A stretch of 64,000 nt of DNA from Flavobacterium sp. N1736 (GTDB lineage: Bacteria > Bacteroidota > Bacteroidia > Flavobacteriales > Flavobacteriaceae), in assembly GCF_025947065.1 (NCBI RefSeq), contig NZ_CP109994.1, positions 3,472,001 through 3,536,000 on the forward strand, written 5' to 3'. Positions 3,639-46,094 of this stretch are shown in pieces. A program made the translations under genes and the position numbers. The notes beneath the pieces were generated by a model. The model made no database searches. It saw nothing but the letters and a program-made list of their open reading frames with translations, and had not been told where the DNA came from. The number at the start of each line of letters is the position of its first letter. The stretch's first letter is position 1.

Positions 3639-3673
3639 TGCAAAAAATATGCATTTTGTGCAAAAAATATGCA
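3639..3673. promoter_or_regulatory. Tandem 15-bp operator-like repeats before susC
   Basis: TGCAAAAAATATGCA occurs at 3639-3653 and again, identically, at 3659-3673. The copies start exactly 20 bp apart, so both lie on the same face of the helix. Each copy has TGCA at both ends. A degenerate relative, TGCAAAAAAAGCA, lies at 3548-3560. The downstream copy ends 19 bases before the TATATTTG element of the susC promoter. A near-identical site lies before the GH20 gene at 15556-15570, which suggests a common regulator. Confidence 0.55.
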
Positions 3674-3742: not shown

Positions 3743-6700
3743 ATGAAAGCAAAGCTAATTTCATTAGTGTTTATCGGAGGAATCATCTTCTCTATAAACG
3801 CCAAAGAGATTGCAATAAAAAAGCATCTTTTTGAACAAACAAGCAATCAGGTTGAAATTTCAGGTCAAATCCTCGGTCAGGATGACGGAATGCCAATTGC
3901 CGGAGCTACAATTTATGCCGAAAGCAATACTAAAAATGCCACCATATCTGATGAGAACGGAAAATTTAAATTAAACGTTCCTGAAAACGAAGCTCATATT
4001 ATTATTTCCTACATGGGTTACGAAACTTTATCATTTGCCTTAATTAAAACTACAAGTTTAACCATCAGATTAAAACCTGCAGAAAATGTTTTAGAACAGG
4101 TTTTGGTAACGGCACTTGGGGTTAAAAAAAGCAGTAAAGCAATTGCATACGCCGTAACAGAACTTAAAGGAACAGAATTTACAAAAGCAAAAGAAACCAA
4201 TATCGCCAATGCATTAGTTGGAAAAATTGCCGGTGTAAATGTAAGCAGCACCGCAACGGGACCAAACGGTTCAAGCAGGGTTGTTATTCGTGGAAATGGT
4301 TCGTTAAACGGAAATAACCAGCCTATGTATGTGGTAAATGATTTGCCCATTGATAATACGCAATTGAATTTACCGGGAATTGGAAACGGCGCGGGAGCAA
4401 CAAGAATAAATGTCGATCGGGGCGATGGAACTTCAGTCATAAATCCTGACGATATTAAAACTATTACGGTTTTGAAAGGCGGAACTGCTGCCGCTCTTTA
4501 TGGCGCAAATGCTGCAAATGGAGTAATTTTGATTCAGACGAAAAGAGGTTCAGCGCAACCAGGAATAGGCGTTGAATACAATACTTCGTTTACTTTTGAA
4601 ACGCCGTCGATTATTCCGGATTGGCAATATGAATACGGTTCCGGAGCGGGAGGAAAAAAGCCAACAACACAAGCCGAAGCTATTGCTGACGGACGCTGGT
4701 CGTGGGGTGCAAAAATGGACGGAACTGATGTTATTCAGTTTGACGGAGTTGCAAGACCTTATGTAGCGCAAAAAGATAATATCAAGAATTTCTACAAAAC
4801 GGGAACTACTTTTATCAATTCGATCGCTTTATCAGGCGGAAATGAAAAAGCAACCGGACGTCTTTCGTTTTCGAATATGGATAATGAAAGCATTTTGCCA
4901 AACTCCGGTTTTAACCGCAAAACTTTAAATATTGCCGGAAATGTGAATTTAACGGACTGGCTAAAATTTGATGTCGTTACCCAATATAATTTAGAAAAAT
5001 CAGAAAACAGACCTACCGTTTCTGATGCGGAAGCAAATGCCAACTGGGGAACTTACATGATTGCAAACACTGTCGACATTAGAAACCTTGCCCCGGGTTA
5101 TGATGCAAATGGTGTTGAGGAAGCATGGAACCCGGTTGCCGTTGCTACAAACCCGTATTTTGTGGTGAATAAAATTAAAAACCACGATACTAAAAATCGG
5201 TTTATCGGAATGGTTAATGTAAAATTGAATTTTACCCGCGACTTATTCCTTCAGGGAAGAATTGGTCAGGATTATACGGATTATGATTTCTTCGGATACA
5301 TTCCAAAAACAACTTTAAATAATCCGGTTGGATATGCGCAGGCTTCAAAAATGAAATTATCAAACCTAAATTCTGAAGCGATTCTTAATTATACCAAGAA
5401 AAATATTTACAAAGAATTCTCTTTAAATGCTTTGGTTGGCGTTAATTCAAGAACGACGCTTAGAGACGAAACTAAAGTCGAAGGATCAAATTTTGTATTG
5501 GATAATTTTTATGCTTTAACCAACTTATCGACGTTGACATATAGTTATCCGTACGGAAAAACAAAAACAAACTCTGTTTACGGAGCTGTAGATTTAGATT
5601 ATAAAAATATTGTTTTCTTAAACTTTACAGGTCGTCAGGATTGGTTTTCGACTTTATCCGCAGAAAATAATACTGTGTTTTATCCGTCTATCGGGACAAG
5701 TTTGATTGTTTCGGATATGATAACAATGCCTCAATTTATTTCATTTGCAAAACTTAGAACTTCCTGGGCTCAGGTTGGTGGCGCAACTCCGGATCCGTAC
5801 GCATTAAATCAATCTTATTCTATGATTCAGGGCGGACATAATGGTCAGCAATTGCAAGGTCCAACAAGTACAAGAGTTCCAAATTCGACTTTAAGCCCGT
5901 TAACATCAACAACATTTGAGATTGGAACTGATTTAGGATTTTTCAATAATCGTTTAAATGTTGATTTTGCATGGTACAATCGTGCCACTACAAATGATAT
6001 TGTTGAAACGACAATTTCTACCGCTTCAGGAGCAAACACTGCTTTACTGAATCTTGGAAAAATGAGAAATAAAGGTGTCGAACTTTTACTTACCGGAAAA
6101 ATCATCAACAATAAAAACTTTTCATGGGATGCTACTTTCAACGGATCCTACAATAAAAATACCGTTGAAGCACTTACAGATCAGCTAAACTCGATTACAA
6201 TGGCAACTTCTGTAAACGGATATGTAACCATTACCAGCGATGTTGGGCGCCCATACAGTATTATAAAAGGATACAAACCGCGTGTTGACGCAAACGGAAA
6301 CACTGTTTATAATGTAAGTGGCGGTTCTGCAACCGTAGCGCAAGGTCCGCTTGAAGAATTAGGACAGGGGGTTCATCCTTGGGGAGCCGGAATTAGCAAT
6401 GAATTCAAATACAAAAATATCTCATTCAGCTTTTTAATCGACGGGAAATTCGGCGGAAGCTTATACTCCGGAACTGATTTATACGGAACTCGTATGGGTT
6501 TAACCAAACTTACGCTTGATGGTCGTGAAACAGGATTACCAATTTCTGGTGTTGACACAAACGGAAATCCGGTAAATATGGTTATTGCTCCGGAAAACCT
6601 TAGAACGTATTATGATGGTTTAAGAAACATTTCATCAACTTTTGTTTACGATGCAAGTTTTATAAAACTAAGACAAATCATTTTGGGGTATCAATTGCCA

Positions 6701-6898
6701 ATAGAAAAACTAAAATCATTGTCTAAACTTCAGGGTGTTTCGGTTTCATTCGTAGCCAGAAACTTATTCATTCTTTACAAGAAAACACCAAACGTAGATC
6801 CTGAATCTGTATTTAGCGCAGGAAATGCTCAGGGAGTAGAACAATTTGGATTACCTAAAACAAGAAGTTTCGGTTTAAGTTTAAACGTTAAATTCTAA
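3743..6898 (+). CDS. SusC/RagA-family TonB-linked outer-membrane transporter
   Basis: 1051 residues. A signal peptide (about 1-21, ending SINA) is followed by a carboxypeptidase-regulatory-like beta-sandwich (about 38-115, GQILGQDDGMPIAGATIYAE). The plug domain (about 125-270) contains RGNGSLNGNNQPMYVVND and the conserved LKGGTAAALYGANAANGVI, and a long beta-barrel ends in a terminal aromatic strand (SFGLSLNVKF). This is the standard SusC architecture. With the SusD lipoprotein that starts 11 bases downstream it should form the outer-membrane complex importing an oligomeric nutrient. The substrate cannot be read from the protein; the downstream genes suggest an amino-sugar-derived compound. 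It is the first gene of the catabolic locus and has its own promoter with tandem operators. Confidence 0.95.
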   Translation: MKAKLISLVFIGGIIFSINAKEIAIKKHLFEQTSNQVEISGQILGQDDGMPIAGATIYAESNTKNATISDENGKFKLNVPENEAHIIISYMGYETLSFALIKTTSLTIRLKPAENVLEQVLVTALGVKKSSKAIAYAVTELKGTEFTKAKETNIANALVGKIAGVNVSSTATGPNGSSRVVIRGNGSLNGNNQPMYVVNDLPIDNTQLNLPGIGNGAGATRINVDRGDGTSVINPDDIKTITVLKGGTAAALYGANAANGVILIQTKRGSAQPGIGVEYNTSFTFETPSIIPDWQYEYGSGAGGKKPTTQAEAIADGRWSWGAKMDGTDVIQFDGVARPYVAQKDNIKNFYKTGTTFINSIALSGGNEKATGRLSFSNMDNESILPNSGFNRKTLNIAGNVNLTDWLKFDVVTQYNLEKSENRPTVSDAEANANWGTYMIANTVDIRNLAPGYDANGVEEAWNPVAVATNPYFVVNKIKNHDTKNRFIGMVNVKLNFTRDLFLQGRIGQDYTDYDFFGYIPKTTLNNPVGYAQASKMKLSNLNSEAILNYTKKNIYKEFSLNALVGVNSRTTLRDETKVEGSNFVLDNFYALTNLSTLTYSYPYGKTKTNSVYGAVDLDYKNIVFLNFTGRQDWFSTLSAENNTVFYPSIGTSLIVSDMITMPQFISFAKLRTSWAQVGGATPDPYALNQSYSMIQGGHNGQQLQGPTSTRVPNSTLSPLTSTTFEIGTDLGFFNNRLNVDFAWYNRATTNDIVETTISTASGANTALLNLGKMRNKGVELLLTGKIINNKNFSWDATFNGSYNKNTVEALTDQLNSITMATSVNGYVTITSDVGRPYSIIKGYKPRVDANGNTVYNVSGGSATVAQGPLEELGQGVHPWGAGISNEFKYKNISFSFLIDGKFGGSLYSGTDLYGTRMGLTKLTLDGRETGLPISGVDTNGNPVNMVIAPENLRTYYDGLRNISSTFVYDASFIKLRQIILGYQLPIEKLKSLSKLQGVSVSFVARNLFILYKKTPNVDPESVFSAGNAQGVEQFGLPKTRSFGLSLNVKF

Positions 6899-6909
6899 AA
6901 TTAAAAGAC

Positions 6910-8439
6910 ATGAAAAAGATAACCATTCTATATATAACAGGCGTACTTTTAGCAAGTATGACAAGCTGTACCAAAGACTTTGAAGAAATAAATACAAACC
7001 CGAATGTTGTTGAAAATCCAAACGCAAATTTCATTTTCAGTAAATCAATTTTAGACGGTTTAAACAATAATTATTTTTTTACCAATATTCTGGAATGCGG
7101 CGGAATGCTGCAGCATTATGCCACTTACAAAGAAGCATCGGGAGTTGGAGATAAATATTTAAGCAACGAAGTTTATTTTTCGGCTTACTTTAATCAGGCT
7201 TATCCAACGGCATTAAGTGAAACCGAAATTGTAATCGATGCGGTAAAAGACAACGCAAACGACAGCAACAAATTAAATATTACCAGAATCTGGAAAGTGT
7301 ATTTGTATCACAGAATTACAGATTTATACGGAGATATTCCGTACTCTGAAGCTGCAAAAGCAAACAGCACACAAATTTTTCTTCCAAAATATGATACTCA
7401 GGAATTCATCTACAAAGATTTATTGAAAGAACTGGATGAAGCTGCTTTGGCATTAGACGCAACGAAACCAAGTTTTGGCGGTGCCGATTTTATCTATAAT
7501 GGCGATGTCGCAAAATGGAAAAAATTCTCATATTCGTTAATGCTTCGTTTAGGAATGAGGCTGTCTAAAGTTGATCCGACATTGGCACAAACCTGGGTTA
7601 ACAAAGCAATTGCCGGAGGCGTAATTCTGAATACGGCAGATAATGCAATTATGAAATATACGGATGGACCGAATGACTTTAACAGAAATCCTTCAGGCTT
7701 TGATTCGAGAAAACAAGATTTTTCCGCAGGATCTTATGGCCAGAGAAATGTGGAAGGCGGAAAATTATCCAAAACATTTATTGATCTCTTACAAGCAACA
7801 GCCGATCCAAGAATTAGCGTTTACGCCGGAGTTTGGGAAGGAACAGTTCAAAACACAAGTCTTGCGGCACAAAAAGGTTTTCCTAACGGAATAAAAATAG
7901 CGCCAACACCAATAGAACAAGCCACTTATTCTGAACCAAATCAAAGTACCGTTTTTAAATACGATGCGCCGCTTATGATTTTAAGCAATGCCGAAACCAA
8001 TTTATTATTGGCAGAAGCCGCTGCAAGAGGCTGGTACGCTGGCGAAACTGATCAGGCTCTATATGAAAAAGGAGTAAAAGCTTCTTTTTTAAACATGGGA
8101 ATTTACGGAACAGCGTATACCATTGCAGATGCAACGCCATATTTAACCCTGAATCCATTTAATGCAGCCGGATCTTTTGAAGATAAAATGAATCAGATTC
8201 ATACTCAAATGTGGATTGCCCTTTTTGTAGACGAGCAGGAAGTTTATGCTAATTGGAGAAGAACAGGATATCCGGTTTTAGTTCCTGTAAACTTTCCGGG
8301 CAATGTTACAAACGGCACAATTCCAAGACGTTTCAAATATCCAACCAGCGAATATTCAGTCAATTCCGCTAACTTAGCAGAAGCAGTTAAACGTCAGGGC
8401 GAAGATAATTTCACAACAAGAATCTGGTGGGATAAATAA
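6910..8439 (+). CDS. SusD/RagB-family nutrient-binding outer-membrane lipoprotein
   Basis: 509 residues. The lipoprotein signal ends at LLASMTSC, followed by TKDFEEINTNPNVV, which is typical of the SusD-like family 2 (PF12771-like) branch. The TPR-type helices with KWKKFSYSLMLRLGMRLS and the late motif LLLAEAAARGW, then EQEVYANWRRTGYP, are family hallmarks. It covers the SusC pore on the cell surface and binds the glycan or other ligand. It is 11 bases downstream of susC and clearly co-transcribed. After it comes a 199-base gap holding a terminal-inverted-repeat element, then the permease gene. Confidence 0.95.
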   Translation: MKKITILYITGVLLASMTSCTKDFEEINTNPNVVENPNANFIFSKSILDGLNNNYFFTNILECGGMLQHYATYKEASGVGDKYLSNEVYFSAYFNQAYPTALSETEIVIDAVKDNANDSNKLNITRIWKVYLYHRITDLYGDIPYSEAAKANSTQIFLPKYDTQEFIYKDLLKELDEAALALDATKPSFGGADFIYNGDVAKWKKFSYSLMLRLGMRLSKVDPTLAQTWVNKAIAGGVILNTADNAIMKYTDGPNDFNRNPSGFDSRKQDFSAGSYGQRNVEGGKLSKTFIDLLQATADPRISVYAGVWEGTVQNTSLAAQKGFPNGIKIAPTPIEQATYSEPNQSTVFKYDAPLMILSNAETNLLLAEAAARGWYAGETDQALYEKGVKASFLNMGIYGTAYTIADATPYLTLNPFNAAGSFEDKMNQIHTQMWIALFVDEQEVYANWRRTGYPVLVPVNFPGNVTNGTIPRRFKYPTSEYSVNSANLAEAVKRQGEDNFTTRIWWDK

Positions 8440-8462
8440 TAATAAACAATTGGTGTAATTAA

Positions 8463-8606
8463 TTTAAACACATAGAAACATAGCTTAAAAATGTTAAAAA
8501 AAAACGTTTCACTTGCATTAACAAACATAGTTACTATGTGTTAAAAGCCAGCTTTTTTTTAACTCCTAATTGAAGTAAAAAAATCTATGTTTCTATGGTG
8601 TTTAAA
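8463..8606 (+). repeat. TIR-bounded noncoding element, copy 1
   Basis: A 144-bp palindromic-ended element between susD and the permease gene. The left end (8463-8483) contains CATAGAAACATAG and the right end (8585-8606) contains CTATGTTTCTATG. The ends are inverted copies over 21-22 bp with one inserted base. The core 8506-8530, beginning GTTTCACTTGCATTAAC, is repeated exactly but inverted at 10540-10564. It has no coding capacity, so it resembles a MITE or a large REP-type element. Confidence 0.75.
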
Positions 8607-8638
8607 ATTTTAGCTATAAGTTAATAATACAAAAATAA

Positions 8639-9958
8639 ATGAGCATATTAATTCTTACGGCATGCATTGCATTTTTAATCATTCAAATCGCCTGGTTTAA
8701 ACTCAATCCGTTTATTGCCTTTATCATAACAGCTTTACTGGCAGGTCTTTTTTTAGGTCTGCCAATAAACACCTTATCGCAAACGGTGCAAAAAGGTTTA
8801 GGCGAAATGTTAGGTTCAATTACGCTGATTATCGTTTTTGGAACCTGCATTGGTAAACTTACGGTTTCATCCGGCGCAGCCAATATTATTGCCAAAACAG
8901 TTATGGGATGGACGGGCGAAAAATATGTCCGCTTAGGCTTAATGATTACCGGATTTATTGTTGGGATACCGCTATTTTATAGTGTTGGATTTGTTTTGTT
9001 AGTACCTTTAATCTTTTCAGTAGCCCATCAATTTAAACTTTCAAAAGTATATTTGGGAATCCCTATGCTTGCGTCACTTTCAGTTGCGCACGGTTTTTTG
9101 CCTCCACATCCGTCTCCAATGGCGTTAAGCAGTATTTTAAATGCTGATATTGGTCTTGTTTTAGTGTACGGAATCATCATTGCCATACCAACCATTTTTA
9201 TTGCAGGTTTGTTATTTTCGAATTTGCTCAAAAACATCAAAACCGAATCTGATCATGAAATTTTAAATGTTGAAGAAGTAGCAAACGAAGGAAAATTGCC
9301 GAGTTTCTCCGTTAGTTTATTTTCAGCCTTGTTTCCGGTTTTCGGTTTAACCATAACTTCAATATTGCCGTTACTTTCAGACAATGAAACACTAATAAAT
9401 ATTTGCAAAACCGTTGGTGAACCAAGCATGATTATGCTGATTTCACTTCTTATTTGCACGTACACTTTAGGAATCAGAATGAACCGAAGCCTGACTTCTG
9501 TAATGGATGATTATGCCATTGCCATAAAAGATGTCGCACTGATTGTTTTAATTGTTGGCGGTGCCGGAAGTTTAAAAGAAGTGATGATCGTAAGCGGCGT
9601 AAACGAAACCATCGTGGCAGCTTTAACCCAAATCAACATTCATCCGTATTTACTGGCGTGGATTATGGCGGCAATTATCAGAGTTTGTGTAGGTTCTGCA
9701 ACTGCGGCAGGATTAATGACTGCCAGCGTTTTATTACCTTTGTTGCAAGCTAATAGTCTTGACCCCAATCTGTTAGTTTTATCTGTTGGAGCAGGAAGTT
9801 TGATGTGCTCGCATGTAAACGATCCAAGTTTTTGGATGTTCAAAGAATATTTTAATATCAGCCTGAAAGATACTTTTAAATCATGGACCGTAATGGAATC
9901 CCTGGTATCTGTTTTAGGAATTGTTTTCGTTTTTATTTTAAACTCAATTATACATTAA
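8639..9958 (+). CDS. GntP-family gluconate-type permease
   Basis: 439 residues, almost wholly hydrophobic with about 12 membrane segments. It is full length for the GntP/Gnt family of proton-coupled sugar-acid symporters. The segments SVAHGFLPPHPSPMALS and GSLMCSHVNDPSFWMFKEYF match the conserved family regions (HGFxPPHPxP; HVNDPxFW). Family members import gluconate, idonate, fructuronate and related acids. In this locus a 2-amino-2-deoxy-gluconic acid is an attractive substrate (inference). The next gene starts 5 bases after the stop. The gene and its ridA neighbour are bracketed by two inverted copies of a 142-144-bp repeat. Confidence 0.92.
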   Translation: MSILILTACIAFLIIQIAWFKLNPFIAFIITALLAGLFLGLPINTLSQTVQKGLGEMLGSITLIIVFGTCIGKLTVSSGAANIIAKTVMGWTGEKYVRLGLMITGFIVGIPLFYSVGFVLLVPLIFSVAHQFKLSKVYLGIPMLASLSVAHGFLPPHPSPMALSSILNADIGLVLVYGIIIAIPTIFIAGLLFSNLLKNIKTESDHEILNVEEVANEGKLPSFSVSLFSALFPVFGLTITSILPLLSDNETLINICKTVGEPSMIMLISLLICTYTLGIRMNRSLTSVMDDYAIAIKDVALIVLIVGGAGSLKEVMIVSGVNETIVAALTQINIHPYLLAWIMAAIIRVCVGSATAAGLMTASVLLPLLQANSLDPNLLVLSVGAGSLMCSHVNDPSFWMFKEYFNISLKDTFKSWTVMESLVSVLGIVFVFILNSIIH

Positions 9959-9963
9959 AAATC

Positions 9964-10431
9964 ATGAATTTATTACCACAAGAAAAATTTGAAACACTCG
10001 GCTTATCATTACCGCCAGCGCCTCAACCTCTTGGTATATATAAACCTTATTTAGTCGACGGAAAGTATTTGTACCTTTCTGGTCACGGTCCTGTTCGCGA
10101 CGACAAATCTTTAATTATCGGAAGAATTGGCGACGATATGGATATTGAAGAAGGAAAACTCGCCGCAAGACAAGTTGGTTTAACCATGCTTTCGACAATT
10201 GTAACCAATTTTGGAAGTCTGAACAAAGTAAAACGTGTTATAAAAGTATTGGGAATGGTAAATTGCAATGGCGATTTCCTCAGACATCCGTACGTAATAA
10301 ACGGCTGCAGTGAATTATTCGCTGAAGTTTGGGGACAAGAAAACGGAATTGGCGTAAGAAGCGCCGTAGGAATGGGATCTTTACCAGACAATATTCCTGT
10401 TGAAGTTGAAGCCGTTTTTGAATTATATTAA
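9964..10431 (+). CDS. RidA-family enamine/imine deaminase
   Basis: 155 residues from the ATG at 9964, which lies 5 bases after the permease stop. A longer reading from 9883 would overlap the permease gene and is not credible. Conserved RidA-like parts are LYLSGHGPVRDD near the N-terminus, the helix ARQVGLTMLSTI and the C-terminal VGMGSLPDNIPVEVEAVFEL. RidA proteins hydrolyse reactive enamines and imines released by PLP-dependent dehydratases. The presence of one here supports the idea that the PLP enzyme at 12371 is an eliminating (ammonia-releasing) enzyme. It lacks the usual Arg in the classical IPxxRS-type motif (the end reads NIPVEVEAVF), so it belongs to a divergent RidA subgroup. Confidence 0.88.
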   Translation: MNLLPQEKFETLGLSLPPAPQPLGIYKPYLVDGKYLYLSGHGPVRDDKSLIIGRIGDDMDIEEGKLAARQVGLTMLSTIVTNFGSLNKVKRVIKVLGMVNCNGDFLRHPYVINGCSELFAEVWGQENGIGVRSAVGMGSLPDNIPVEVEAVFELY

Positions 10432-10438
10432 AAAGTTA

Positions 10439-10657
10439 TGCCACAGATTAATATGATTAAAAAGGATTAAACGCATAGAAACATAGGTTTCTTGCCTGAA
10501 TACCAGAAGGAAGTAGAAAAAACTAGCTTTCACACATAGCTATGTTTGTTAATGCAAGTGAAACGCCTTTTTTCAGCACTTTAAAACTATGTTTCTATGT
10601 GTTTAAAAATTAACCGCTAAGTTTATAAAATCATTTTAATCTATATAATCTGTGGCA
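10439..10657. repeat. Outer palindromic repeat (TGCCACAGATTA arms) containing element copy 2
   Basis: TGCCACAGATTA at 10439-10450 is perfectly inverted as TAATCTGTGGCA at 10646-10657. The same arm ends the separate element at 59003-59137, and the adjoining stretch AAATCATTTTAATC is also shared. Between these arms lies a complete copy of the CATAGAAACATAG element, so one repeat family appears to be inserted in another. Confidence 0.65.
10466..10607 (-). repeat. TIR-bounded noncoding element, copy 2 (inverted)
   Basis: 142 bp with ends CATAGAAACATAG (within 10466-10486) and CTATGTTTCTATG (within 10587-10607). The 25-bp core at 10540-10564 is the exact reverse complement of the core of copy 1, and the flanking parts align when one copy is inverted. 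The two copies therefore form a roughly 2-kb inverted pair around the permease and ridA genes. Confidence 0.75.
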
Positions 10658-10672
10658 AAAAAAACAAAACAC

Positions 10673-11704
10673 ATGAATACAAATACGCCACAAACTAGAA
10701 TTGCAACTTTCGGAGAATTATTACTTCGGATGAATGTTGCCAATGGAGATCGGTTTACGCAGGCCAATGAAATAAAAGTACACGTTGGCGGTGCCGAAGC
10801 AAATGTTTGTGTTTTACTTTCTCAACTTGGCATTCAAACCGATTATATAACGAGATTACCCCAAAATGATTTGGCGCAACTGGCTTTAAACGAACTTCAG
10901 AAATACAAAGTAAATACTTCAAAATGTGTGTATGGCGGAGAACGTTTGGGTTTGTATTTTGTCGAAGTCGGAAATCAAATCAGGCAATCGCAGGTTATTT
11001 ACGATCGAAGCAATTCATCCTTTGCCACTATTCAAAAAGATCAAATTAACTGGGATATGGCTTTCGCCGATGTAACCCATTTTCATTGGTCGGGAATAAG
11101 TCCGGGAGTTTCTAACGAAGCCGGTTTGGTTTGTAAAGAAGCCATTCTTTCGGCACATAAAAAAGGATTGCCTATTTCTTCTGATTTTAATTACCGATCA
11201 AAATTATGGCAATACGGAAAACATCCGTCTGAAATTATGCCCGATTTGCTTCAATACAGCACCATTACGGTTGCAGATTTAGATGCGATTGAAATTTATT
11301 TCGGAATAAAAACCGACAAAAAGGAATCGGATGCAAATCGTTTTCAAAAGACTTTTGAATTATTAAAAGAGAAAATGCCTTATCTAAAAACCCTCGCAAT
11401 GAGTTTTAGAAAATCAGACGGGCTGGCGCATTTATATAAAGGAATGTTACTTCATGAAGGTCATTTTTATGAAACAAAAGAATACAAAATACATTTGGTA
11501 ACCGATCAAATTGGTTCCGGAGATGCCTTTAACGCTGGATTATTATACGGATTATCGAATAAATTATCAGCACAGGAATGTATCGACTGGGCAACCGCCT
11601 GCGGTGTAATCAAACAGAGTATTCACGGAGATTTTGCCATGAGCAATCCAACAGAAATAAGTCATTTTATTGCAAATGGCGCGAGTAACAGAATCAATAG
11701 ATAA
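10673..11704 (+). CDS. kdgK: PfkB-family sugar kinase, 2-keto-3-deoxygluconate kinase type
   Basis: 343 residues from the ATG at 10673. A GTG at 10652 is in frame, but it lies inside the repeat arm AATCTGTGGCA and would add a non-homologous MAKKTKH, so I reject it. The N-terminus ATFGELLLRM with VGGAEANVCVLLSQLG matches KDG kinases, and the C-terminal PfkB signature DQIGSGDAFNAGLLYG carries the catalytic Asp. The expected reaction is ATP-dependent phosphorylation of 2-keto-3-deoxygluconate to KDPG. This is strongly supported by the KDPG aldolase gene that starts 15 bases downstream. Confidence 0.9.
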   Translation: MNTNTPQTRIATFGELLLRMNVANGDRFTQANEIKVHVGGAEANVCVLLSQLGIQTDYITRLPQNDLAQLALNELQKYKVNTSKCVYGGERLGLYFVEVGNQIRQSQVIYDRSNSSFATIQKDQINWDMAFADVTHFHWSGISPGVSNEAGLVCKEAILSAHKKGLPISSDFNYRSKLWQYGKHPSEIMPDLLQYSTITVADLDAIEIYFGIKTDKKESDANRFQKTFELLKEKMPYLKTLAMSFRKSDGLAHLYKGMLLHEGHFYETKEYKIHLVTDQIGSGDAFNAGLLYGLSNKLSAQECIDWATACGVIKQSIHGDFAMSNPTEISHFIANGASNRINR

Positions 11705-11719
11705 ATTAGAATCAAGAAT

Positions 11720-12367
11720 ATGTACAGCATTTTAAAAGCACAAGGCGTACTTCCGTTAGTAACACAAATCAATATCGAAACAGCCAGAATTGTGCTGCAG
11801 TCTGCCAGTGATGCCGGCATAAAAATTATCGAGTTTGCCGCTCGTGCAACTGATGCTAAAGAAGTTTTTACGCAAATGGTTGCATTTAAAAAAGCAAACA
11901 ATTTAGATATTAAACTGGCGGTTGGTTCTATTTTAAGTGTTGATGATGCTAAAATATACCATCAATTGGGCGCAGATTGTATCGTTTGCCCGCATACAGA
12001 TTTTGAAATTGGTAATTATTGTATTAAAAATAATATTTACTGGATTCCCGGCGCAGCAACTTTAAACGAGGTGCTTCACGCCAATAAATTAGGTGCCGAT
12101 ATTGTAAAACTTTTTCCTGCTGATAAAATTGGCGGACCCGGATATGTAAAAGCGATTAGAGCGCCGTTTCCAAATTTAAAAATAATGCCAACCGGAGGCG
12201 TAACTTTAGAAGAAAGCAATCTGAAATCATGGTTCAAATCCGGCGTTGTTTGTGTTGGAATTGGTTCTAATTTATTTTCGAAAGAAATGCTTTTGGATTT
12301 AAATTATGAGCAATCATTTCAGGCTTTTCAAAATTTAATTGAAGTGGTAGAAAAAACAAGAAACTAG
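11720..12367 (+). CDS. eda: 2-dehydro-3-deoxy-6-phosphogluconate (KDPG) aldolase
   Basis: 215 residues, class I KDPG/KHG aldolase. The Schiff-base lysine is Lys130 in DIVKLFPADKIGGPGYVKA, Glu38 in IIEFAARAT occupies the usual catalytic Glu position, and MPTGGV is the phosphate-binding strand. It cleaves KDPG to pyruvate and glyceraldehyde 3-phosphate. It is 15 bases after the kinase gene and 3 bases before the next, so these three genes are surely one unit. The canonical E-V-T-L-R-T segment is replaced by E-F-A-A-R-A-T, as in some Bacteroidota homologues. Confidence 0.93.
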   Translation: MYSILKAQGVLPLVTQINIETARIVLQSASDAGIKIIEFAARATDAKEVFTQMVAFKKANNLDIKLAVGSILSVDDAKIYHQLGADCIVCPHTDFEIGNYCIKNNIYWIPGAATLNEVLHANKLGADIVKLFPADKIGGPGYVKAIRAPFPNLKIMPTGGVTLEESNLKSWFKSGVVCVGIGSNLFSKEMLLDLNYEQSFQAFQNLIEVVEKTRN

Positions 12368-12370
12368 ATT

Positions 12371-13486
12371 ATGCAAAACAATTGGTGGAAAATTAATTCC
12401 GAAATTCACGTTGATACACCGTTTTTAGCCGTTTACGAAGATCGTATCCGGTTTAATCTCGAACGCCTTATTGGCACAGTAAACGGTGACACTCAAAAAT
12501 TAAGGCCTCACATAAAAACACATAAAATAGGTGAAATTCTGGAGTTGTTTAAAATTTACAATATCAAAAAAGTAAAATGTGCTACGATTGCCGAAGCTGA
12601 ACTTGCGGCAATACATGAGATTCCTGACATTCTCCTCGCCTATCAGCCTGTGGGAGTTAAAAAAGAAAGATGGATTTCGTTGATTCAAAAATATCCAAAT
12701 ATCAATTTCTCGACTATTGTCGACAATCTGGAATCGGCGAAAGCCTTACATGAAATTGCCAAAAAAAACAATCTGATTCTAACTATTTATTTGGATTTAA
12801 ATTCGGGAATGAACAGAACCGGAATTTCAATTCATAAAGACTGGAGCATTTTAATAGATGAAATTGCTGCATTAAAAAACATGCATTTTGCAGGAATTCA
12901 TATTTACGATGGTCATTTAAAAGGCGATGCAGAAGAGAGAACCACCATAACTTCAAATATATTTTTTAGCATAAATGAACATCTTCAAACTATTCAGAAA
13001 AAGCTGGGTTACGATTTAAAAATTGTTGCCGGCGGATCTAATACATTTCCGTTTTATGCCACACAAAAAAATGTAGAATGCAGTCCGGGAACTTTTGTTT
13101 TTTGGGATTCTAATTACCAGATTCATTTACCGGAACAGGAATTTAAACCTGCTTTGGTTATTGTGGGAACCATAATTTCAAAACCCACAAATACAACAAT
13201 TTGTATTGATATTGGATACAAAGCCGTTTCATCAGAAAATCCGATTGACAAAAGATTAGTGATTTTAAATGATGAAAATCTAATCCCGATTTCGCATTCA
13301 GAAGAACATTTGATTGTAGAAAATCAGGGCAAAAACCAATATCAAATTGGCGATACCATTTATGCACTGCCGTATCATGTTTGCCCAACCTGCGCACTTT
13401 ACGATTCTGTTCAGGTAATCAATAAAGAGCAGCAAATTTGCGATCAATGGCTGGTTGCAGCGCGCGGCAGAAAAATTAATATCTAG
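12371..13486 (+). CDS. D-threonine aldolase/D-serine dehydratase-fold PLP enzyme
   Basis: 371 residues. It is a fold-type III (alanine-racemase-like) PLP enzyme of the DSD1/D-TA family. Lys49 in LRPHIKTHK is the PLP-binding lysine, and the C-terminal His336 and Cys338 in LPYHVCPTCALYDS form the divalent-metal site of this family. Known members act on D-serine, D-threonine, 3-hydroxy-D-aspartate and, to my recollection, D-glucosaminate (releasing ammonia and giving 2-keto-3-deoxygluconate). It directly follows KDG kinase and KDPG aldolase genes and lies near GntP and RidA genes. I therefore infer that its substrate is a 2-amino sugar acid, not a simple amino acid. It starts 3 bases after eda. 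Confidence 0.9.
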   Translation: MQNNWWKINSEIHVDTPFLAVYEDRIRFNLERLIGTVNGDTQKLRPHIKTHKIGEILELFKIYNIKKVKCATIAEAELAAIHEIPDILLAYQPVGVKKERWISLIQKYPNINFSTIVDNLESAKALHEIAKKNNLILTIYLDLNSGMNRTGISIHKDWSILIDEIAALKNMHFAGIHIYDGHLKGDAEERTTITSNIFFSINEHLQTIQKKLGYDLKIVAGGSNTFPFYATQKNVECSPGTFVFWDSNYQIHLPEQEFKPALVIVGTIISKPTNTTICIDIGYKAVSSENPIDKRLVILNDENLIPISHSEEHLIVENQGKNQYQIGDTIYALPYHVCPTCALYDSVQVINKEQQICDQWLVAARGRKINI

Positions 13487-13584
13487 CAGCAGAAAAAGGA
13501 GAATAAAGAAAAAGAATAGACCTCATAATAACACTTGTAGAGAACCTCTGAGCCTTTGGACTTTTGTCCATTAAAAAAAATACT

Positions 13585-14655
13585 ATGTTTATAATAGACG
13601 CCCATTTAGACCTGAGCATGAATGCGATGGAATGGAATCGAGATTTAAGAAATGACGTACCAACTTTGCGCCATTTAGAAAAAGGAATGACGGATAAACC
13701 GGATCGTGAACGTGCTACGGTTTCGTTTCCGGATTTGCGACGCGGCAATATCGGGATTGTAGTCGCTACGCAAATTGCAAGATTTGTAAAACCAGACAGT
13801 ATTATTCCGGGTTGGAATTCTCCTGAGCAAGCCTGGGCGCAAACACAAGGACAGCTTGCGTGGTATAAAGCGATGGAAGAAGCCGGAGAAATTACAGCAA
13901 TTACCGATAAAAAATCGCTCCAAAAACAAATTGATTTATGGAATGACGGAACACCAAACGATAAAAAACCAATTGGATATATTTTGAGTTTAGAAGGTGC
14001 TGATTCTATTATTGATATTTCGTATTTAGAAAAAGCATACAATTACGGATTACGCGCCATTGGTCCTGCACATTATGGACCCGGACGTTACGCAAACGGA
14101 ACTGATGCAACAGGAAAAATGAATCAGAACGGTCTGGATTTGTTGAAAGAAATGGAACGATTGAATATTATTCTCGATGCCACACATTTGTGCGACGATG
14201 CTTTTTGGCAGGCTTTAGACCATTATAACGGACCCGTTTGGGCAAGTCATAATAATTGCAGAAGCCTGGTTGATCACAATCGTCAATATAGCGACGAAAT
14301 GATCAAAGCTTTGATTTCGAGAGGCGCAGTTATTGGCGGTGCTTTAGATGCGTGGATGTTAGTTCCGGATTGGGAACGAGGCGTTTCGACTCCGAAAGGT
14401 ACAAATTGCGATCTTGAAACGGTTTTTAAACACATGGATCATATTTGCCAATTGGCAGGAAATGCAAATCATATTGGCGTAGGCTCAGATCTTGACGGCG
14501 CTTTTGGCACAGAGCAATCTCCGTATGATTTAAATACGATTGCTGATTTACAAAAACTCGTTCTTATCTTTAAAAGCAAAGGTTATTCTGATGAAGATTT
14601 AAACAAAATCTTTCACCAGAACTGGATTAATTTTTTAATGAAAAATTGGGATTAA
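13585..14655 (+). CDS. M19 (membrane/renal dipeptidase) family zinc hydrolase
   Basis: 356 residues from the ATG at 13585. An in-frame TTG at 13564 would add only seven residues. M19 metal ligands are visible: His7 and Asp9 in IIDAHLDLS, Glu137 in LSLEGADS, His201 in LDATHLCD and His222 in WASHNNCRSL, with GVGSDLDGAFG near the end. Family members cleave dipeptides, often with a C-terminal D-residue, and some hydrolyse N-acyl-D-amino acids. It has no signal peptide, so it is probably cytoplasmic. Being in the amino-sugar-acid locus, it may deacylate an N-acyl precursor (inference). It is 98 bases after the PLP enzyme, and its stop overlaps the convergent regulator stop at TTAA. Confidence 0.88.
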   Translation: MFIIDAHLDLSMNAMEWNRDLRNDVPTLRHLEKGMTDKPDRERATVSFPDLRRGNIGIVVATQIARFVKPDSIIPGWNSPEQAWAQTQGQLAWYKAMEEAGEITAITDKKSLQKQIDLWNDGTPNDKKPIGYILSLEGADSIIDISYLEKAYNYGLRAIGPAHYGPGRYANGTDATGKMNQNGLDLLKEMERLNIILDATHLCDDAFWQALDHYNGPVWASHNNCRSLVDHNRQYSDEMIKALISRGAVIGGALDAWMLVPDWERGVSTPKGTNCDLETVFKHMDHICQLAGNANHIGVGSDLDGAFGTEQSPYDLNTIADLQKLVLIFKSKGYSDEDLNKIFHQNWINFLMKNWD

Positions 14656-15428
14656 ATAAAGACTAAACTTGGAACTGCCTTCTTATACGATTGTAATTTT
14701 TCGTCGTTTGGATCAACTTCCGTGACAACGTAATCAACCTCAGATAAGTTGGCAATTTTCATTTTTAAAACCGTATCGAGTTTTTCAGAAATAGTAAGAA
14801 TCGCGGTTTTTTCAGAAGCCTGAATCATTGCTTTTTTAACCTGAACGGTTTCCCAGTCAGAATCTGAAAATCCGCCTTCGATATCTAAAGCATTTGTTCC
14901 TAAAATTAATAAATCGACTTTAATATTTGCCAACTGATTATAGACATCGCCGCTCACACACATTTGGCTGTAGGATGAAATACTGCCGCCAATCATGATA
15001 ATTTTAACGTTGGGTTTATCCAAAAGTTCAACCGCAGATAAAACGGTAACCGTAAAAATAGTAAGATTTAAATCATTAGGAATTAAGCGAATGAATTCGC
15101 GAATTGTAGTTCCGCCGCCAATTAATAAAACCATTCCGTCGTGAAGTAAACCTAAAGTTTTTTGTGCAATGATTTGTTTTGATTCGCCTGCATAAGTTTG
15201 ATTTGATGAAGAATGATGGTACGCTTTTGTCATCGCACCGCCTTTTACTTTAATCAATAACGATTCTGATTCAAGTTCATTAATATCACGTCTCACCGTA
15301 TCTTCTGAAACAAATAATTTAGCCGAAAGTGTTTCAAAACTGACGCGGGTATGCAAGTTAATCTCTTTTAAAATAAGATTTTTACGCTCTTCCTTGCTAT
15401 AGTTTACCACTTCATTATCGTTGTTCAT
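14652..15428 (-). CDS. DeoR/GlpR-family transcriptional regulator
   Basis: 258 residues. The N-terminal winged helix-turn-helix reads LSAKLFVSEDTVRRDINELE followed by KGGA, the DeoR signature. The C-terminal DeoRC sensor domain contains LLIGGGTTIREFIRLIP and LLILGTNALDIEGGFSD, and normally binds a phosphorylated sugar metabolite such as KDPG. The gene lies between the two halves of the locus, convergent with the dipeptidase gene and divergent from the GH20 gene. It is the natural candidate regulator for both. Two perfect palindromes lie just upstream of its start (15434-15448 and 15469-15481). Confidence 0.93.
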   Translation of the reverse strand: MNNDNEVVNYSKEERKNLILKEINLHTRVSFETLSAKLFVSEDTVRRDINELESESLLIKVKGGAMTKAYHHSSSNQTYAGESKQIIAQKTLGLLHDGMVLLIGGGTTIREFIRLIPNDLNLTIFTVTVLSAVELLDKPNVKIIMIGGSISSYSQMCVSGDVYNQLANIKVDLLILGTNALDIEGGFSDSDWETVQVKKAMIQASEKTAILTISEKLDTVLKMKIANLSEVDYVVTEVDPNDEKLQSYKKAVPSLVFI

Positions 15429-15433
15429 GCAAA

Positions 15434-15481
15434 TTCAATTTTATTGAAAGCAAATGTAAACAATAAATGCAATATTATTGC
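15434..15481. promoter_or_regulatory. Paired palindromes upstream of the DeoR gene
   Basis: TTCAATTTTATTGAA at 15434-15448 has 6-bp arms with a TTT centre. GCAATATTATTGC at 15469-15481 has 6-bp arms around a single T. Both lie within 55 bases of the regulator start codon and could be autoregulatory operators. They differ from the TGCA-ended motif found before susC and the GH20 gene. Confidence 0.35.
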
Positions 15482-15553
15482 GAAGTGAATTATAACTCAA
15501 AGTAATAAAAAAGTTAACGAGCCTATTTTAAAGACATTTATATACAATTTAGT

Positions 15554-15595
15554 GCTGCAAAAAAAATGCAGCTTCATTTACAAAACCTACATTTG
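15554..15595 (+). promoter_or_regulatory. GH20 gene promoter with operator-like site
   Basis: TACATTTG at 15588-15595 matches TAnnTTTG. Seventeen bases upstream, TGCAAAAAAAATGCA at 15556-15570 (extended to GCTGCA/TGCAGC arms at 15554-15572) differs by one base from the tandem repeats before susC. In both promoters the site occupies the place where the -33 element would be. Confidence 0.55.
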
Positions 15596-15617
15596 TTTAA
15601 CAAACCAAAAAATAACC

Positions 15618-17921
15618 ATGCAAAAAAGTATATTTCTCTTTTTGATATTCTGTTATTCGTTCGGAAATGCACAAACTTCTCTAACTAATAATTCCATCAT
15701 TCCTGCTCCAAATTCATACAAAGCAACCGGAGACAGTATTACTATAAATGGACAAGTAAAAGTTATTTTTGAAAATAATAAGTTCAGCATGAAAGAACTT
15801 AAAACAGCGCAAATTTTTGAGTCGGCTATTAACAAAAATGTGTCTTCAAAAAAGAGCAATATTGCCATTTTGTTTATTACCAAAAATCCATCAGCTTCAT
15901 TAAAAAAAGAAGCATATACAATTAATATTACTGCAAAAAAGATCACCGTTACCGGAAGTGAAGAAGGATTATTTTATGCGGTTCAGAGTTTAATGCAGCT
16001 TTTTCCGAACAAACCTAAAAATCAGGAAATAAAATTGCCTTTTGTAACCATCGAAGACGAGCCCAGATACGGTTACCGCGGGCTTCACCTCGATGTTTGT
16101 CGTCATTTCTTTTCTGTTGCTGTTATAAAAGATTTTATTACACAAATGTCCAGTTATAAATTAAACAACTTTCACTGGCATTTAACAGACGATCAGGGCT
16201 GGAGAATTGAGATAAAAAAGTATCCAAAATTAACCGAAATCGGATCTAAAAGAGCACAGACTTTAGTGGGAAATAAATTCGAAAGATCACCGTATTTTTT
16301 TGACGGAAATCCGTACGGAGGTTTTTATACGCAGGAAGAAATTAAAGACGTTGTAAAATTTGCCGAGGAACATTATGTCAATATAATTCCCGAAATCGAA
16401 ATGCCCGGACATGCAACGGCAGCGGTTACGGCATATCCAAATTTAGCTTGTTTTCCGGATCGCCAATATAAAGTTGTAGAATATTGGGGTGTTTTTGAAG
16501 ATATTTTTTGTGCGGGAAAGGAAGAAACCTTTACTTTTCTTGAAGATGTTTTAACTGAAGTTATGGCTTTGTTTCCGAGTAAATATATTCATATTGGCGG
16601 AGACGAATGTCCGAAAACAAGATGGAAAGAATGCCCGAATTGTCAAAAACGAATCAAAGAATTAGGTTTAAAAAACGAACATGAATTACAAAGTTATTTA
16701 ACTACAAGAATCGAGAAATTCCTGAATGCAAACGGAAGACAAATTTTAGGTTGGGATGAAATGCTCGAAGGCGGACTTGCACCAAATGCCGCTGTAATGT
16801 CATGGCGAGGTGAAGCCGGCGGAATTAGTGCCGCAAGACAAAAACATAACGTAATCATGAATCCGGAACAGGTTCTTTATTTAGATTACAACCAAGGATA
16901 TTCTCCACAAGAACCTTTAACAATTGGAAGATTGACGACGGTTGAAAAAATATACAATTACAACCCAACTCCTGTCGATAGTTTAACTGTTGACGAGCAA
17001 AAATACATTATGGGCGTGCAGTCGAATCTTTGGTCAGAATATTTGACAAGTCCCGCAAAATTAAATTACATGATTTATCCGCGAGTATTTGCTTTAGCAG
17101 AAATTGCCTGGACAGAACCTAAAAACAAAGATTACGATCATTTTATTTTAAATCAAATTCCGTATCATTTAGAAAAACTAGAAGCACAAAAAAGATTGTA
17201 CAAAGTTCCAACTCCTTTTGGCGCTAATGAAACGGCACTAATAGCATCACAATATGTTTTAGATTTAAAACCAACGATCAAAAATAGTCAAATTTTCTAC
17301 ACAATTGACGGTTATAATCCTGATGAAACGGCAGAACTTTACACAAAACCTGTAACGATAAATATCCCAAAAGGAGAATTTAGAATCATAAAAACGGTTC
17401 AGATTAGTGCAAGCGGAAGAAGAAGTTCTATCAGTAAAATATTGGTTCGGAATCCCGATTTAAAATCGGCTTTAACCATAAAACCAACTAAGAAAGGTTT
17501 AAAGTTTGATTATTTTACAGGAACATTATTTCAGCAAGCGCAAGATTTAGAATTATCAAAACCTGTTAATTCCGGCATTTTTGAAGGTGCAATAAGCAGC
17601 GAAAAATGGAAAACGAAAACAGAGCGCTATATCGGCTTAAAATTCGACGGATACATCTATATTCCTGAAACTGCAAATTATACAATTTCGACGCTTTCAG
17701 ATGACGGATCGAAGCTTTTTATCGACAATGAATTAGTAGTTAATAATGATGGCATTCATTGGCTCAACGAAGCGTATGGAGCGGTGAAACTCGAAAAAGG
17801 TTTTCACAAAATCAATATCAGTTATTTTGACCAGATTGGCGGAACTACTTTAACTTGTTTTATTCAGCAGGAAGGAAAAGAAAAACAAGAAATTAGCGCT
17901 TCGCAATTGTATTATGAATAA
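15618..17921 (+). CDS. Secreted GH20 beta-N-acetylhexosaminidase with PA14 domain
   Basis: 767 residues from the ATG at 15618, where a clean signal peptide begins (MQKSIFLFLIFCYSFGNA). A longer GTG reading from 15552 runs through the operator and is rejected. Domains in order are a GH20b-type N-domain (about 30-140), the GH20 barrel (about 150-500) with RGLHLDVCRHFF and catalytic Asp329-Glu330 in IGGDECPKTRW, a chitobiase C-like beta domain (about 545-610), and a C-terminal PA14 domain (about 630-767; GYIYIPETANYTISTLSDDG). It removes terminal GlcNAc or GalNAc in the periplasm or at the cell surface. It is divergent from the DeoR gene and shares an operator-like site with susC. Confidence 0.94.
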   Translation: MQKSIFLFLIFCYSFGNAQTSLTNNSIIPAPNSYKATGDSITINGQVKVIFENNKFSMKELKTAQIFESAINKNVSSKKSNIAILFITKNPSASLKKEAYTINITAKKITVTGSEEGLFYAVQSLMQLFPNKPKNQEIKLPFVTIEDEPRYGYRGLHLDVCRHFFSVAVIKDFITQMSSYKLNNFHWHLTDDQGWRIEIKKYPKLTEIGSKRAQTLVGNKFERSPYFFDGNPYGGFYTQEEIKDVVKFAEEHYVNIIPEIEMPGHATAAVTAYPNLACFPDRQYKVVEYWGVFEDIFCAGKEETFTFLEDVLTEVMALFPSKYIHIGGDECPKTRWKECPNCQKRIKELGLKNEHELQSYLTTRIEKFLNANGRQILGWDEMLEGGLAPNAAVMSWRGEAGGISAARQKHNVIMNPEQVLYLDYNQGYSPQEPLTIGRLTTVEKIYNYNPTPVDSLTVDEQKYIMGVQSNLWSEYLTSPAKLNYMIYPRVFALAEIAWTEPKNKDYDHFILNQIPYHLEKLEAQKRLYKVPTPFGANETALIASQYVLDLKPTIKNSQIFYTIDGYNPDETAELYTKPVTINIPKGEFRIIKTVQISASGRRSSISKILVRNPDLKSALTIKPTKKGLKFDYFTGTLFQQAQDLELSKPVNSGIFEGAISSEKWKTKTERYIGLKFDGYIYIPETANYTISTLSDDGSKLFIDNELVVNNDGIHWLNEAYGAVKLEKGFHKINISYFDQIGGTTLTCFIQQEGKEKQEISASQLYYE

Positions 17922-46054: not shown

Positions 46055-46065
46055 AGGCAAAAAAA

Positions 46066-46094
46066 AAGCCATCAGAAGTAAATCCTGATGGCTT
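46066..46094 (-). terminator. Terminator of the beta-propeller gene
   Basis: AAGCCATCAG (46066-46075) pairs with CTGATGGCTT (46085-46094), with a T run on the minus strand. It lies between two minus-strand genes. Confidence 0.8.

What the first reader, a model, noticed from the sequence alone, without database searches (positions are those of the whole stretch)
3743..17921. A candidate locus for catabolism of amino aldonic acids, perhaps from oxidised chitin
Sequence shows one gene run: susC, susD, GntP permease, ridA, KDG-kinase-like PfkB kinase, KDPG aldolase, D-TA/DSD1-fold PLP enzyme, M19 hydrolase, then convergent deoR and divergent secreted GH20. Established: kinase plus aldolase turn 2-keto-3-deoxygluconate into pyruvate and glyceraldehyde 3-phosphate; GntP imports sugar acids; RidA cleans up after PLP dehydratases; GH20 releases GlcNAc-type ends. 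I recall an oxidative chitin pathway in Pseudoalteromonas in which N-acetylglucosaminate is deacetylated, deaminated to KDG and split through KDPG by D-amino-acid-like enzymes. Inference: this is a Bacteroidota version, with SusCD in place of the marine transporters.
Basis: partly seen in the sequence, partly recalled or inferred. Interest (0 to 1): 0.8.

Follow-up and report, generated by a model that had tools for sequence, protein, structure and literature searches.

The report
Flavobacterium regulon for amino-sugar acids
A Flavobacterium carries a conserved gene set, linked by a repeated DNA motif (likely a regulator's binding site) that also precedes a predicted amino-sugar gene elsewhere in its genome, and the set is predicted to take up and break down an oxidised amino sugar, likely scavenged from chitin cut by other microbes, with mostly different protein families from those of the pathway described in marine bacteria.

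Summary
The gene run is real: SusC, SusD, GntP, RidA, KDG-kinase-type PfkB, KDPG-aldolase family, fold-III PLP enzyme and M19 hydrolase on one strand, then deoR and GH20. Of 22 Flavobacterium loci, 15 keep all parts; two Pedobacter split them between two loci.

A 15-bp palindrome, TGCA-W7-TGCA, unites them. It stands twice before SusC and once before GH20, precedes the catabolic operon in 22 of 22 Flavobacterium loci (up to one substitution), recurs at both Pedobacter loci, and in four Flavobacterium genomes precedes a NagB/PIG-L (glucosamine-6-phosphate deaminase) gene. The PLP enzyme has the His-x-Cys metal motif of dehydratases, not the His-x-Asp of D-threonine aldolases.

An amino aldonic acid substrate is favoured (0.55) over plain D-amino acids. 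This would be a Bacteroidota analogue of the gammaproteobacterial ong pathway from other parts: no OngB, no close OngC, no OngIT relative, and no AA10 LPMO in any of the 38 sampled genomes with the PLP gene, this one included, so oxidised chitin would be scavenged. M19 as deacetylase is inferred. A simpler GntP-RidA-PLP-M19 module is widespread in Bacteroidota; a D-amino-acid role there is not excluded.

The parts
3639..3653 (.). operator-like site 1, TGCAAAAAATATGCA, SusC promoter region
   Evidence: twin spacing of 20 bp in 17 of 22 loci
3659..3673 (.). operator-like site 2, TGCAAAAAATATGCA, SusC promoter region
3743..6898 (+). SusC/RagA TonB-linked outer-membrane transporter
   Evidence: TIGR04056 603 bits; Pfam
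6910..8439 (+). SusD-like lipoprotein
   Evidence: PF12771 292 bits
8639..9958 (+). GntP-family sugar-acid:H+ symporter
   Evidence: TIGR00791 459 bits, cut-off 293
9964..10431 (+). RidA (YjgF) family protein
   Evidence: PF14588 55.5 bits; start by sequence
10673..11704 (+). PfkB kinase of KDG-kinase type
   Evidence: best solved relative 2afb, 2-keto-3-deoxygluconate kinase, 202 bits; below all NCBIfam cut-offs
11720..12367 (+). KHG/KDPG aldolase family protein
   Evidence: PF01081; NF005499 215 bits, under its cut-off of 275, and below the cut-offs of all eight models listed; solved KDPG aldolases
12371..13486 (+). fold-type III PLP enzyme, D-TA/D-Ser dehydratase family, His-x-Cys metal motif at residues 336-338
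   Evidence: PF01168 + PF14031
13585..14655 (+). M19 amidohydrolase (dipeptidase family), proposed N-deacetylase
   Evidence: PF01244 162 bits; alignment A4; fold
14652..15428 (-). DeoR-family regulator, candidate reader of the operator-like sites
   Evidence: PF00455 + PF08220; orthologue only in the PLP+ genomes of a 60-genome set
15556..15570 (.). operator-like site 3, TGCAAAAAAAATGCA, deoR-GH20 divergent region (before the GH20 ATG at 15618)
15618..17921 (+). secreted GH20 beta-N-acetylhexosaminidase with PA14 domain
   Evidence: PF00728 399 bits; solved relatives; signal peptide judged from the sequence

Best explanation
These genes likely form one regulon that is predicted to import and break down an amino aldonic acid, most likely N-acetyl-D-glucosaminate (GlcNAc1A) at the end of oxidised chito-oligosaccharides that other microbes would make. 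Shown: gene content, its conservation in Flavobacterium, the shared palindrome TGCA-W7-TGCA before the operon, before GH20 and before a distant nagB/PIG-L gene, and the dehydratase-type metal motif of the PLP enzyme. Inferred: SusCD brings the oligosaccharide into the periplasm, GH20 trims it to GlcNAc plus GlcNAc1A, GntP imports the acid, M19 removes the acetyl group, the PLP enzyme (with RidA dealing with the enamine/imine) eliminates ammonia to give 2-keto-3-deoxygluconate, the kinase and aldolase turn that into pyruvate and glyceraldehyde 3-phosphate, and NagB handles the released GlcNAc. DeoR is the likely reader of the palindrome. It would work like the ong pathway of Pseudoalteromonas, but with other protein families at deacetylation, inner-membrane uptake and regulation, a SusC/D pair at the outer membrane, and a different PLP subfamily at deamination.
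For: Palindrome: 3 exact sites in the window, all in this locus. Over 22 Flavobacterium loci (window included), with up to one substitution, 22 of 22 have a site upstream of the first operon gene (SusC, or GntP where SusCD is missing), 17 of 22 as twins exactly 20 bp apart, and 17 of 22 between deoR and GH20; elsewhere 22 sites in 448 kb. Exact sites only: 17, 10 and 14 of 22, with 1 elsewhere. Pedobacter: P. caeni has kinase-PLP-DeoR-GH20-GH20-GntP at one locus and SusC(62%)-SusD(60%)-RidA(85%)-M19(79%) at another, both with the site. Own genome: 8 sites in 5.1 Mb (reversed control 0; in the other five genomes 5-8 sites against 0-2); three stand in tandem before a 642-aa NagB+PIG-L protein, and a site precedes it in G006, G008 and G015 too. 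DeoR orthologues (79% or more) occur in 5 of 60 genomes, exactly the five with the PLP gene, own included. PLP: HxC as in 3anu and OngC, HxD in 4v15 and 6qkb (PMC4401734 passages). OngC turns glucosaminate into KDG (PMC9537276). KDG-kinase-type gene in 37 of 38 PLP+ but 110 of 357 PLP- genomes (not controlled for genome size or kinship).
Against: No AA10 LPMO, so the supposed substrate must be made by others. Six of 21 related Flavobacterium loci lack kinase and aldolase (and SusCD) while keeping GntP, RidA, PLP, M19, deoR and GH20, though all six genomes have another KDG-kinase-type gene. Outside the Flavobacterium/Pedobacter group only 2 of 98 PLP loci have a kinase and 1 of 98 a GH20 nearby. 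None of the five further sites in the two Pedobacter genomes lies at nagB/PIG-L, so that link rests on four Flavobacterium genomes. M19's nearest folds are dipeptidases. OngC also deaminates D-Ser and D-Thr. GH20 is nearer to 6q63 than to 6yhh. No expression or enzyme data.
Confidence: 0.55

Rival explanations
1. D-amino-acid or dipeptide utilisation: GntP imports (as the D-serine carrier DsdX does), M19 cuts L-Xaa-D-Xaa dipeptides, the PLP enzyme deaminates D-Ser/D-Thr, RidA clears aminoacrylate; kinase and aldolase are passengers.
For: The GntP-RidA-PLP-M19 core is common without sugar genes: of 98 loci outside the GH20/DeoR group, RidA 68, M19 67, GntP 40, kinase 2. Solved M19 relatives include one bound to an L-Ala-D-Ala mimic. 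GntP also scores on the DsdX model, 238 bits, under its cut-off of 618. OngC itself takes D-Ser and D-Thr.
Against: The palindrome puts the operon together with GH20, SusCD and, in four genomes, NagB/PIG-L. A KDG-kinase-type gene nearer to the window's own (51-55% identity) than the Flavobacterium paralogues (34-42%) stands in the operon in Pedobacter and, in a separate part of the tree, between PLP and M19 in L052.
Confidence: 0.23
2. Same pathway end, but M19 is not the acetyl-removing step: free glucosaminate is the substrate or the PIG-L domain deacetylates, and M19 cuts another amide of the imported glycan.
For: The regulon also holds a PIG-L (GlcNAc-PI de-N-acetylase family) domain fused to NagB. 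In Pedobacter N36a and P. caeni M19 is not in the PLP operon.
Against: Outside Flavobacterium M19 is more conserved (56-71% to the window in A4) than the PLP enzyme (36-48% in A3), and in Pedobacter it stays downstream of the same palindrome, which suggests one shared substrate.
Confidence: 0.14
3. A glycoprotein (N-glycan) or plain GlcNAc utilisation locus: GH20 and SusCD serve such glycans, and the PLP module treats a side product.
For: Nearest solved GH20 is 6q63 at 531 bits against 229 bits for 6yhh (that 6q63 is a Bacteroides N-glycan enzyme and 6yhh the F. johnsoniae chitobiase is recalled). The Flectobacillus relative has an alpha-L-fucosidase in the cluster.
Against: GH20 is the only glycosidase among the ten proteins of the locus. 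GntP, kinase and aldolase are families for acids, not for GlcNAc.
Confidence: 0.08

Closest known systems
ong cluster of Pseudoalteromonas prydzensis (oxidative chitin utilisation; Jiang 2022, PMC9537276)
   Same: outer-membrane TonB-type uptake, GH20, inner-membrane symporter, RidA, fold-III PLP enzyme with HxC motif, sugar kinase to KDPG, regulator; some ong clusters add a KDPG aldolase
   Different: SusC/D pair in place of a lone receptor, GntP for SSS, M19 for the D-aminoacylase OngB, a different PLP subfamily (25% identity), DeoR for MurR/RpiR, no AA10 LPMO
D-serine dehydratase / D-threo-3-hydroxyaspartate dehydratase (3anu, 3wqc)
   Same: fold; HxC metal ligands (alignment for 3anu; for 3wqc from PDB titles of the H351A and C353A mutants)
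   Different: 17-21% identity in structure alignments; substrate unknown
D-threonine aldolase and BhcC hydroxyaspartate aldolase (4v15, 6qkb)
   Different: HxD metal ligands; aldol cleavage, not deamination
M19 renal-type dipeptidases (3fdg, 3ly0, 3id7)
   Different: 22-23% identity; gene context with a PLP enzyme, RidA and GntP; substrate unknown
Chitin utilisation locus of Flavobacterium johnsoniae (PMC5127042)
   Same: genus, SusCD, GH20, chitin theme
   Different: that locus is hydrolytic (GH18, GH20, NagB); none of the acid-pathway genes is named in the passages I saw

Membership tests
ong oxidative chitin pathway | OngB-type (D-aminoacylase family) GlcNAc1A deacetylase | tested here: not met
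   0 matches at E 1e-20 in G000 and in the other 23 same-genus genomes of a 395-genome search; no blastp hit of the M19 protein to OngB at E 1
ong oxidative chitin pathway | OngC orthologue | tested here: not met
   25% identity over 226 aa, E 1e-9; OngC rows on their own branch, SH-aLRT 100, in a quick tree with long branches
ong oxidative chitin pathway | SSS carrier OngIT and MurR/RpiR regulator OngR | tested here: not met
   none of 13 window proteins (the locus and its flanks) hits OngIT or OngR at E 1; the rest of the genome was not searched for them
ong oxidative chitin pathway | accompanying AA10 LPMO | tested here: not met
   PF03067 absent in G000; 1 of 395 phylum genomes, not a PLP+ one
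ong oxidative chitin pathway | GH20, RidA and KDG kinase with the PLP gene | tested here: met
   but only GH20 aligns well with OngA (36% over 304 aa), kinase 21% (E 5e-4), RidA no hit to OngD
ong oxidative chitin pathway | growth on GlcNAc1A | not testable with these tools
   needs culture
D-TA / D-Ser dehydratase fold-III PLP family | Ala_racemase_N plus D-ser_dehydrat domains | tested here: met
dehydratase type within that family | His-x-Cys metal ligands instead of His-x-Asp | tested here: met
   HVC 336-338, invariant in 21 aligned sequences; paper passages
D-threonine aldolase | His-x-Asp metal ligands | tested here: not met
   Cys at the Asp position
M19 dipeptidase family | PF01244 domain and invariant candidate metal residues (H7, D9, E137, H201, H222, D302; their role is recalled) | tested here: met
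M19 dipeptidase family | dipeptidase activity | not testable with these tools
   needs assay
KDG kinase | substrate residues (G, Y, Y-x-R, R, D) of known KDG kinases | tested here: inconclusive
   G, Y, Y-x-R and R seen by eye in the alignments with 2afb and 1v19, residue list from PMC5334617 passages; the two Asp were not mapped by number; all NCBIfam scores are below cut-off
polysaccharide utilisation locus | SusC/SusD pair with glycoside hydrolase under shared control | tested here: met
   control is inferred from the shared palindrome

The most novel reading that the evidence does not exclude
Bacteroidota assembled their own amino-aldonate pathway. An M19 'dipeptidase' is a sugar-acid N-deacetylase, a D-threonine-aldolase-like enzyme with a His-x-Cys site is a D-glucosaminate ammonia-lyase, and GntP is the carrier. 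The plain GntP-RidA-PLP-M19 module, whose PLP gene occurs in 38 of 395 sampled phylum genomes, is a widespread way to eat oxidised amino sugars made by other microbes' LPMOs or oxidases, without any LPMO of its own.
Probability: 0.36. Interest if true: 0.78.

Novelty: new variant of a known kind. Interest (0 to 1): 0.6.

Why it matters
Jiang 2022 found the oxidative chitin route in Gammaproteobacteria and one Betaproteobacterium, by searching for ong homologues. If this regulon does the same chemistry with other protein families, such a search would miss it, and a phylum known for polysaccharide breakdown would gain a route for LPMO products although only 1 of 395 sampled genomes encodes an AA10 LPMO: a testable case of cross-feeding. 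It would also give functions to three loosely named families (GntP permease, 'D-TA family PLP enzyme', 'membrane dipeptidase') that sit together in many Bacteroidota, and it supplies a concrete operator and inducer test.

Tried and rejected
An OngB hidden elsewhere in the genome: of the 4 PF07969 matches of G000, the 3 with a locus give only weak, partial matches to a D-aminoacylase (best 1.5e-7 over 94 residues; the fourth was not examined), and OngB itself finds nothing at 1e-20. Vibrio hits L008/L009 as ong clusters: rejected, HxD aldolase-type; real ong clusters are in L125, L126 and L127. Kinase next to PLP as phylum-wide evidence: rejected as weak; 2 of 98 loci outside the group is close to chance for 2-5 kinase-like genes per genome, and only the in-operon case L052 counts. 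The palindrome in Paraflavitalea L049 and Flectobacillus L072: SusC, SusD, DeoR and GH20 are homologous (44-61%) but no TGCA-W7-TGCA is there. Further palindrome sites: own 1381412 and 2781910, and in relatives those examined, match none of the locus or amino-sugar queries apart from the nagB/PIG-L and NagP cases and may be chance. Of G004's six sites, two are in the cluster, one other was examined (no nagB/PIG-L) and three were not; two of G008's eight were not examined either. The five further sites of the two Pedobacter genomes were examined: no nagB/PIG-L within the loci (nagB/PIG-L queried on the 3-kb loci and on L240). k-mer counts of promoters gave mostly A/T runs; the palindrome was seen by eye in the sequences and then tested. 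Fold search: no OngB-type or sugar-deacetylase chain was among the rows shown for M19, which excludes nothing. The kinase co-occurrence table uses counts that I read by eye. The search for homologous proteins and the PHROGs and PADLOC libraries were not used.


Full report
What is there. The window lies in a single-contig 5.1-Mb genome (G000, position 3472001-3536000). By PLP identity (83%) its nearest named relatives are Flavobacterium sp. Root186 and F. johnsoniae CI04, so I call it Flavobacterium. Upstream lie a Big_5-domain protein and a carbon-nitrogen hydrolase, downstream succinate dehydrogenase-type genes; most related Flavobacterium loci share at least part of these flanks, so the locus sits at a fixed chromosomal place.

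Conservation. A phylum sample gave the PLP gene in 38 of 395 genomes (E 1e-60 or better, own included); the other 37 loci were fetched. With four same-genus and five plasmid loci added and two identical rows dropped, 124 locus rows were compared for gene neighbours within 9 kb. In 23 rows (21 same-genus, 2 Pedobacter) GH20 and DeoR stand with the PLP gene: GntP 23, RidA 22, M19 21, kinase 17, aldolase 15, SusC 14, SusD 14. Among 98 other rows (3 distant plasmid rows, L008-L010, set aside): RidA 68, M19 67, GntP 40, SusC 7, SusD 5, kinase 2, aldolase 1, GH20 1, DeoR 0. The rule undercounts a little: Paraflavitalea L049 and Flectobacillus L072 do have a DeoR homologue (59-61%) more than 9 kb away, and L072 a GH20 split over two ORFs. 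A quick tree of 133 rows puts the window with the 23 in one clade of 24 (SH-aLRT 99). So a common core, GntP-RidA-PLP-M19, has in one lineage become part of a polysaccharide-type locus with GH20, DeoR, SusCD, kinase and aldolase.

The palindrome. Promoter regions of the locus share TGCA-N7-TGCA (seen by eye; 3 exact matches in the window, all here; 9 of 100 shuffles reach 3). That count alone is weak; conservation makes it strong. Over 22 Flavobacterium loci with an A/T spacer and up to one substitution, all 22 have a site 79-213 bp before the first gene of the catabolic operon, 17 as twins exactly 20 bp apart; 17 have one between deoR and GH20; outside these places there are 22 sites in 448 kb. 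With exact sites only the figures are 17, 10, 14, and 1 elsewhere. Where SusCD is missing, the sites stand before GntP instead. Five of the six loci that lack kinase and aldolase also lack the GH20 site. Gene starts in this count are starts of aligned stretches. Some of these loci are close relatives, so they are not 22 independent cases. In the window and in Pedobacter the GH20 site lies inside the longest possible ORF but before the likely start.

Pedobacter is the more independent test. P. caeni and Pedobacter N36a keep kinase, PLP enzyme, DeoR, two GH20 and GntP together but have no M19 there. M19 was then found elsewhere in both genomes at 79-80% identity, the only match at E 0.001. In P. 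caeni it ends a run SusC(62%)-SusD(60%)-RidA(85%)-M19(79%) with two palindromes upstream; in N36a RidA (matching in two pieces) and M19 have two upstream. The main loci carry the palindrome before the kinase genes and at the 5' end of GH20. The same set of genes is thus found with the same motif at two separate places.

Link to amino sugars. The own genome has 8 sites of TGCA-W7-TGCA against 0 for the reversed control pattern; the other five genomes tested have 5-8 against 0-2. [quoted passage not shown] G006, G008 and G015 also have a site there, and G006 and G015 another before a NagP-like carrier. Against this: in the two Pedobacter genomes none of the five further sites is at nagB/PIG-L, and for G004 the question is open (3 of 6 sites not examined). 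With a narrower pattern, 7 of the 55 genomes without the PLP gene in the 60-genome set have a site (9 sites, with the loci), none of them with nagB/PIG-L within the 3-kb locus. DeoR orthologues (79% or more) occur in 5 of those 60 genomes, exactly the five with the PLP gene, own included; the rest have none or at most 37% paralogues at E 1e-20. That DeoR reads the palindrome is an inference from this and from the site in its own promoter region.

Comparison with the ong pathway. In P. prydzensis GlcNAc1A goes through OngB (deacetylase), OngC (deaminase) and KdgK, then by hypothesis a KDPG aldolase, with RidA (OngD) essential but of unknown role (sections 13, 14, 17 and 40 and passages of PMC9537276 seen). 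The steps match here, the proteins do not: PLP 25%, kinase 21%, no RidA hit, GH20 36%, and no hit to OngB above E 0.2, nor any to OngIT or OngR, among 13 window proteins (the one OngB line is a chance match of GH20). In the phylum sample, close OngB (54-55%) occurs in 2 of 395 genomes (93 have some match at 1e-20), where it stands with OngD (81-83%) and OngIT (57-58%): ong-type genes do exist in a few Bacteroidota, as a separate system.

Against the reading. No AA10 LPMO; the 2016 F. johnsoniae paper also says none were known in Bacteroidetes then (passage of PMC5127042). Six of 21 related loci lack SusCD, kinase and aldolase together; all six genomes have another KDG-kinase-type gene (G006, G015; G079, G227, G278, G372). 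The widespread core mostly has no sugar genes nearby. A KDG-kinase-type gene is present in 37 of 38 PLP+ genomes against 110 of 357 PLP- ones (E 1e-35), which fits, but genome size and kinship are not controlled. GH20 is closer to 6q63 than to 6yhh, which I recall as the F. johnsoniae chitobiase.

Print. Eight searches of the held library listed no paper on a Bacteroidota version, and 'bacteroid' does not occur in the main text of the two ong papers. Of PMC12017989 I saw outline, abstract and passages; of PMC4401734, PMC5127042 and PMC5334617 passages only. Supplementary files were not open to me.

Verdict. A real, conserved gene set with a shared motif. Amino-sugar-acid catabolism is the best reading at 0.55 (lowered from 0.58 on re-check, because the nagB link is absent in Pedobacter and open in G004). 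The exact acid, the M19 step and DeoR as reader are inferred.

Noticed in passing
window 8465-8605 and 10468-10606: Two related intergenic hairpin elements of about 140 bp with terminal inverted repeats around CTATGTTTCTATG (4 matches against 0.05 expected; fold z-scores -4.9 and -5.6); the SusD-GntP gap is only about 14 bp in L011 and L015, so perhaps a mobile palindromic element.
   Followed up: partly
L204 and L205 (genomes G392, G228): Two Bacteroidota of one genus carry ong-type genes OngB (54-55%), OngD (81-83%) and OngIT (57-58%) side by side, outside the groups named in print; no OngC or OngA match at E 0.5 within the fetched 11-20 kb.
   Followed up: partly
L238 (genome G006) 8571-12096: A NagP-like MFS carrier next to nagB/PIG-L, with the same palindrome upstream, and NTP-transferase plus GHMP kinase genes beside them: a possible extension of the amino-sugar regulon.
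   Followed up: partly
L072 7837-9195 and 15001-16746: The Flectobacillus relative has an alpha-L-fucosidase inside the cluster and a GMC oxidoreductase downstream, a possible source of sugar oxidation; its GH20 is split over two ORFs.
   Followed up: no
L214 10594-10880: RidA next to M19 in Pedobacter N36a matches only in two pieces, so it may be decayed; a second RidA lies in the main locus L024.
   Followed up: no
window 29138-55149: Ten further ORFs scanned are mostly housekeeping or surface genes (UvrD helicase, tRNA synthetase, glutamate dehydrogenase, PorZ-like type IX secretion protein, PDDEXK nuclease); 44135-46072 has no Pfam match.
   Followed up: no
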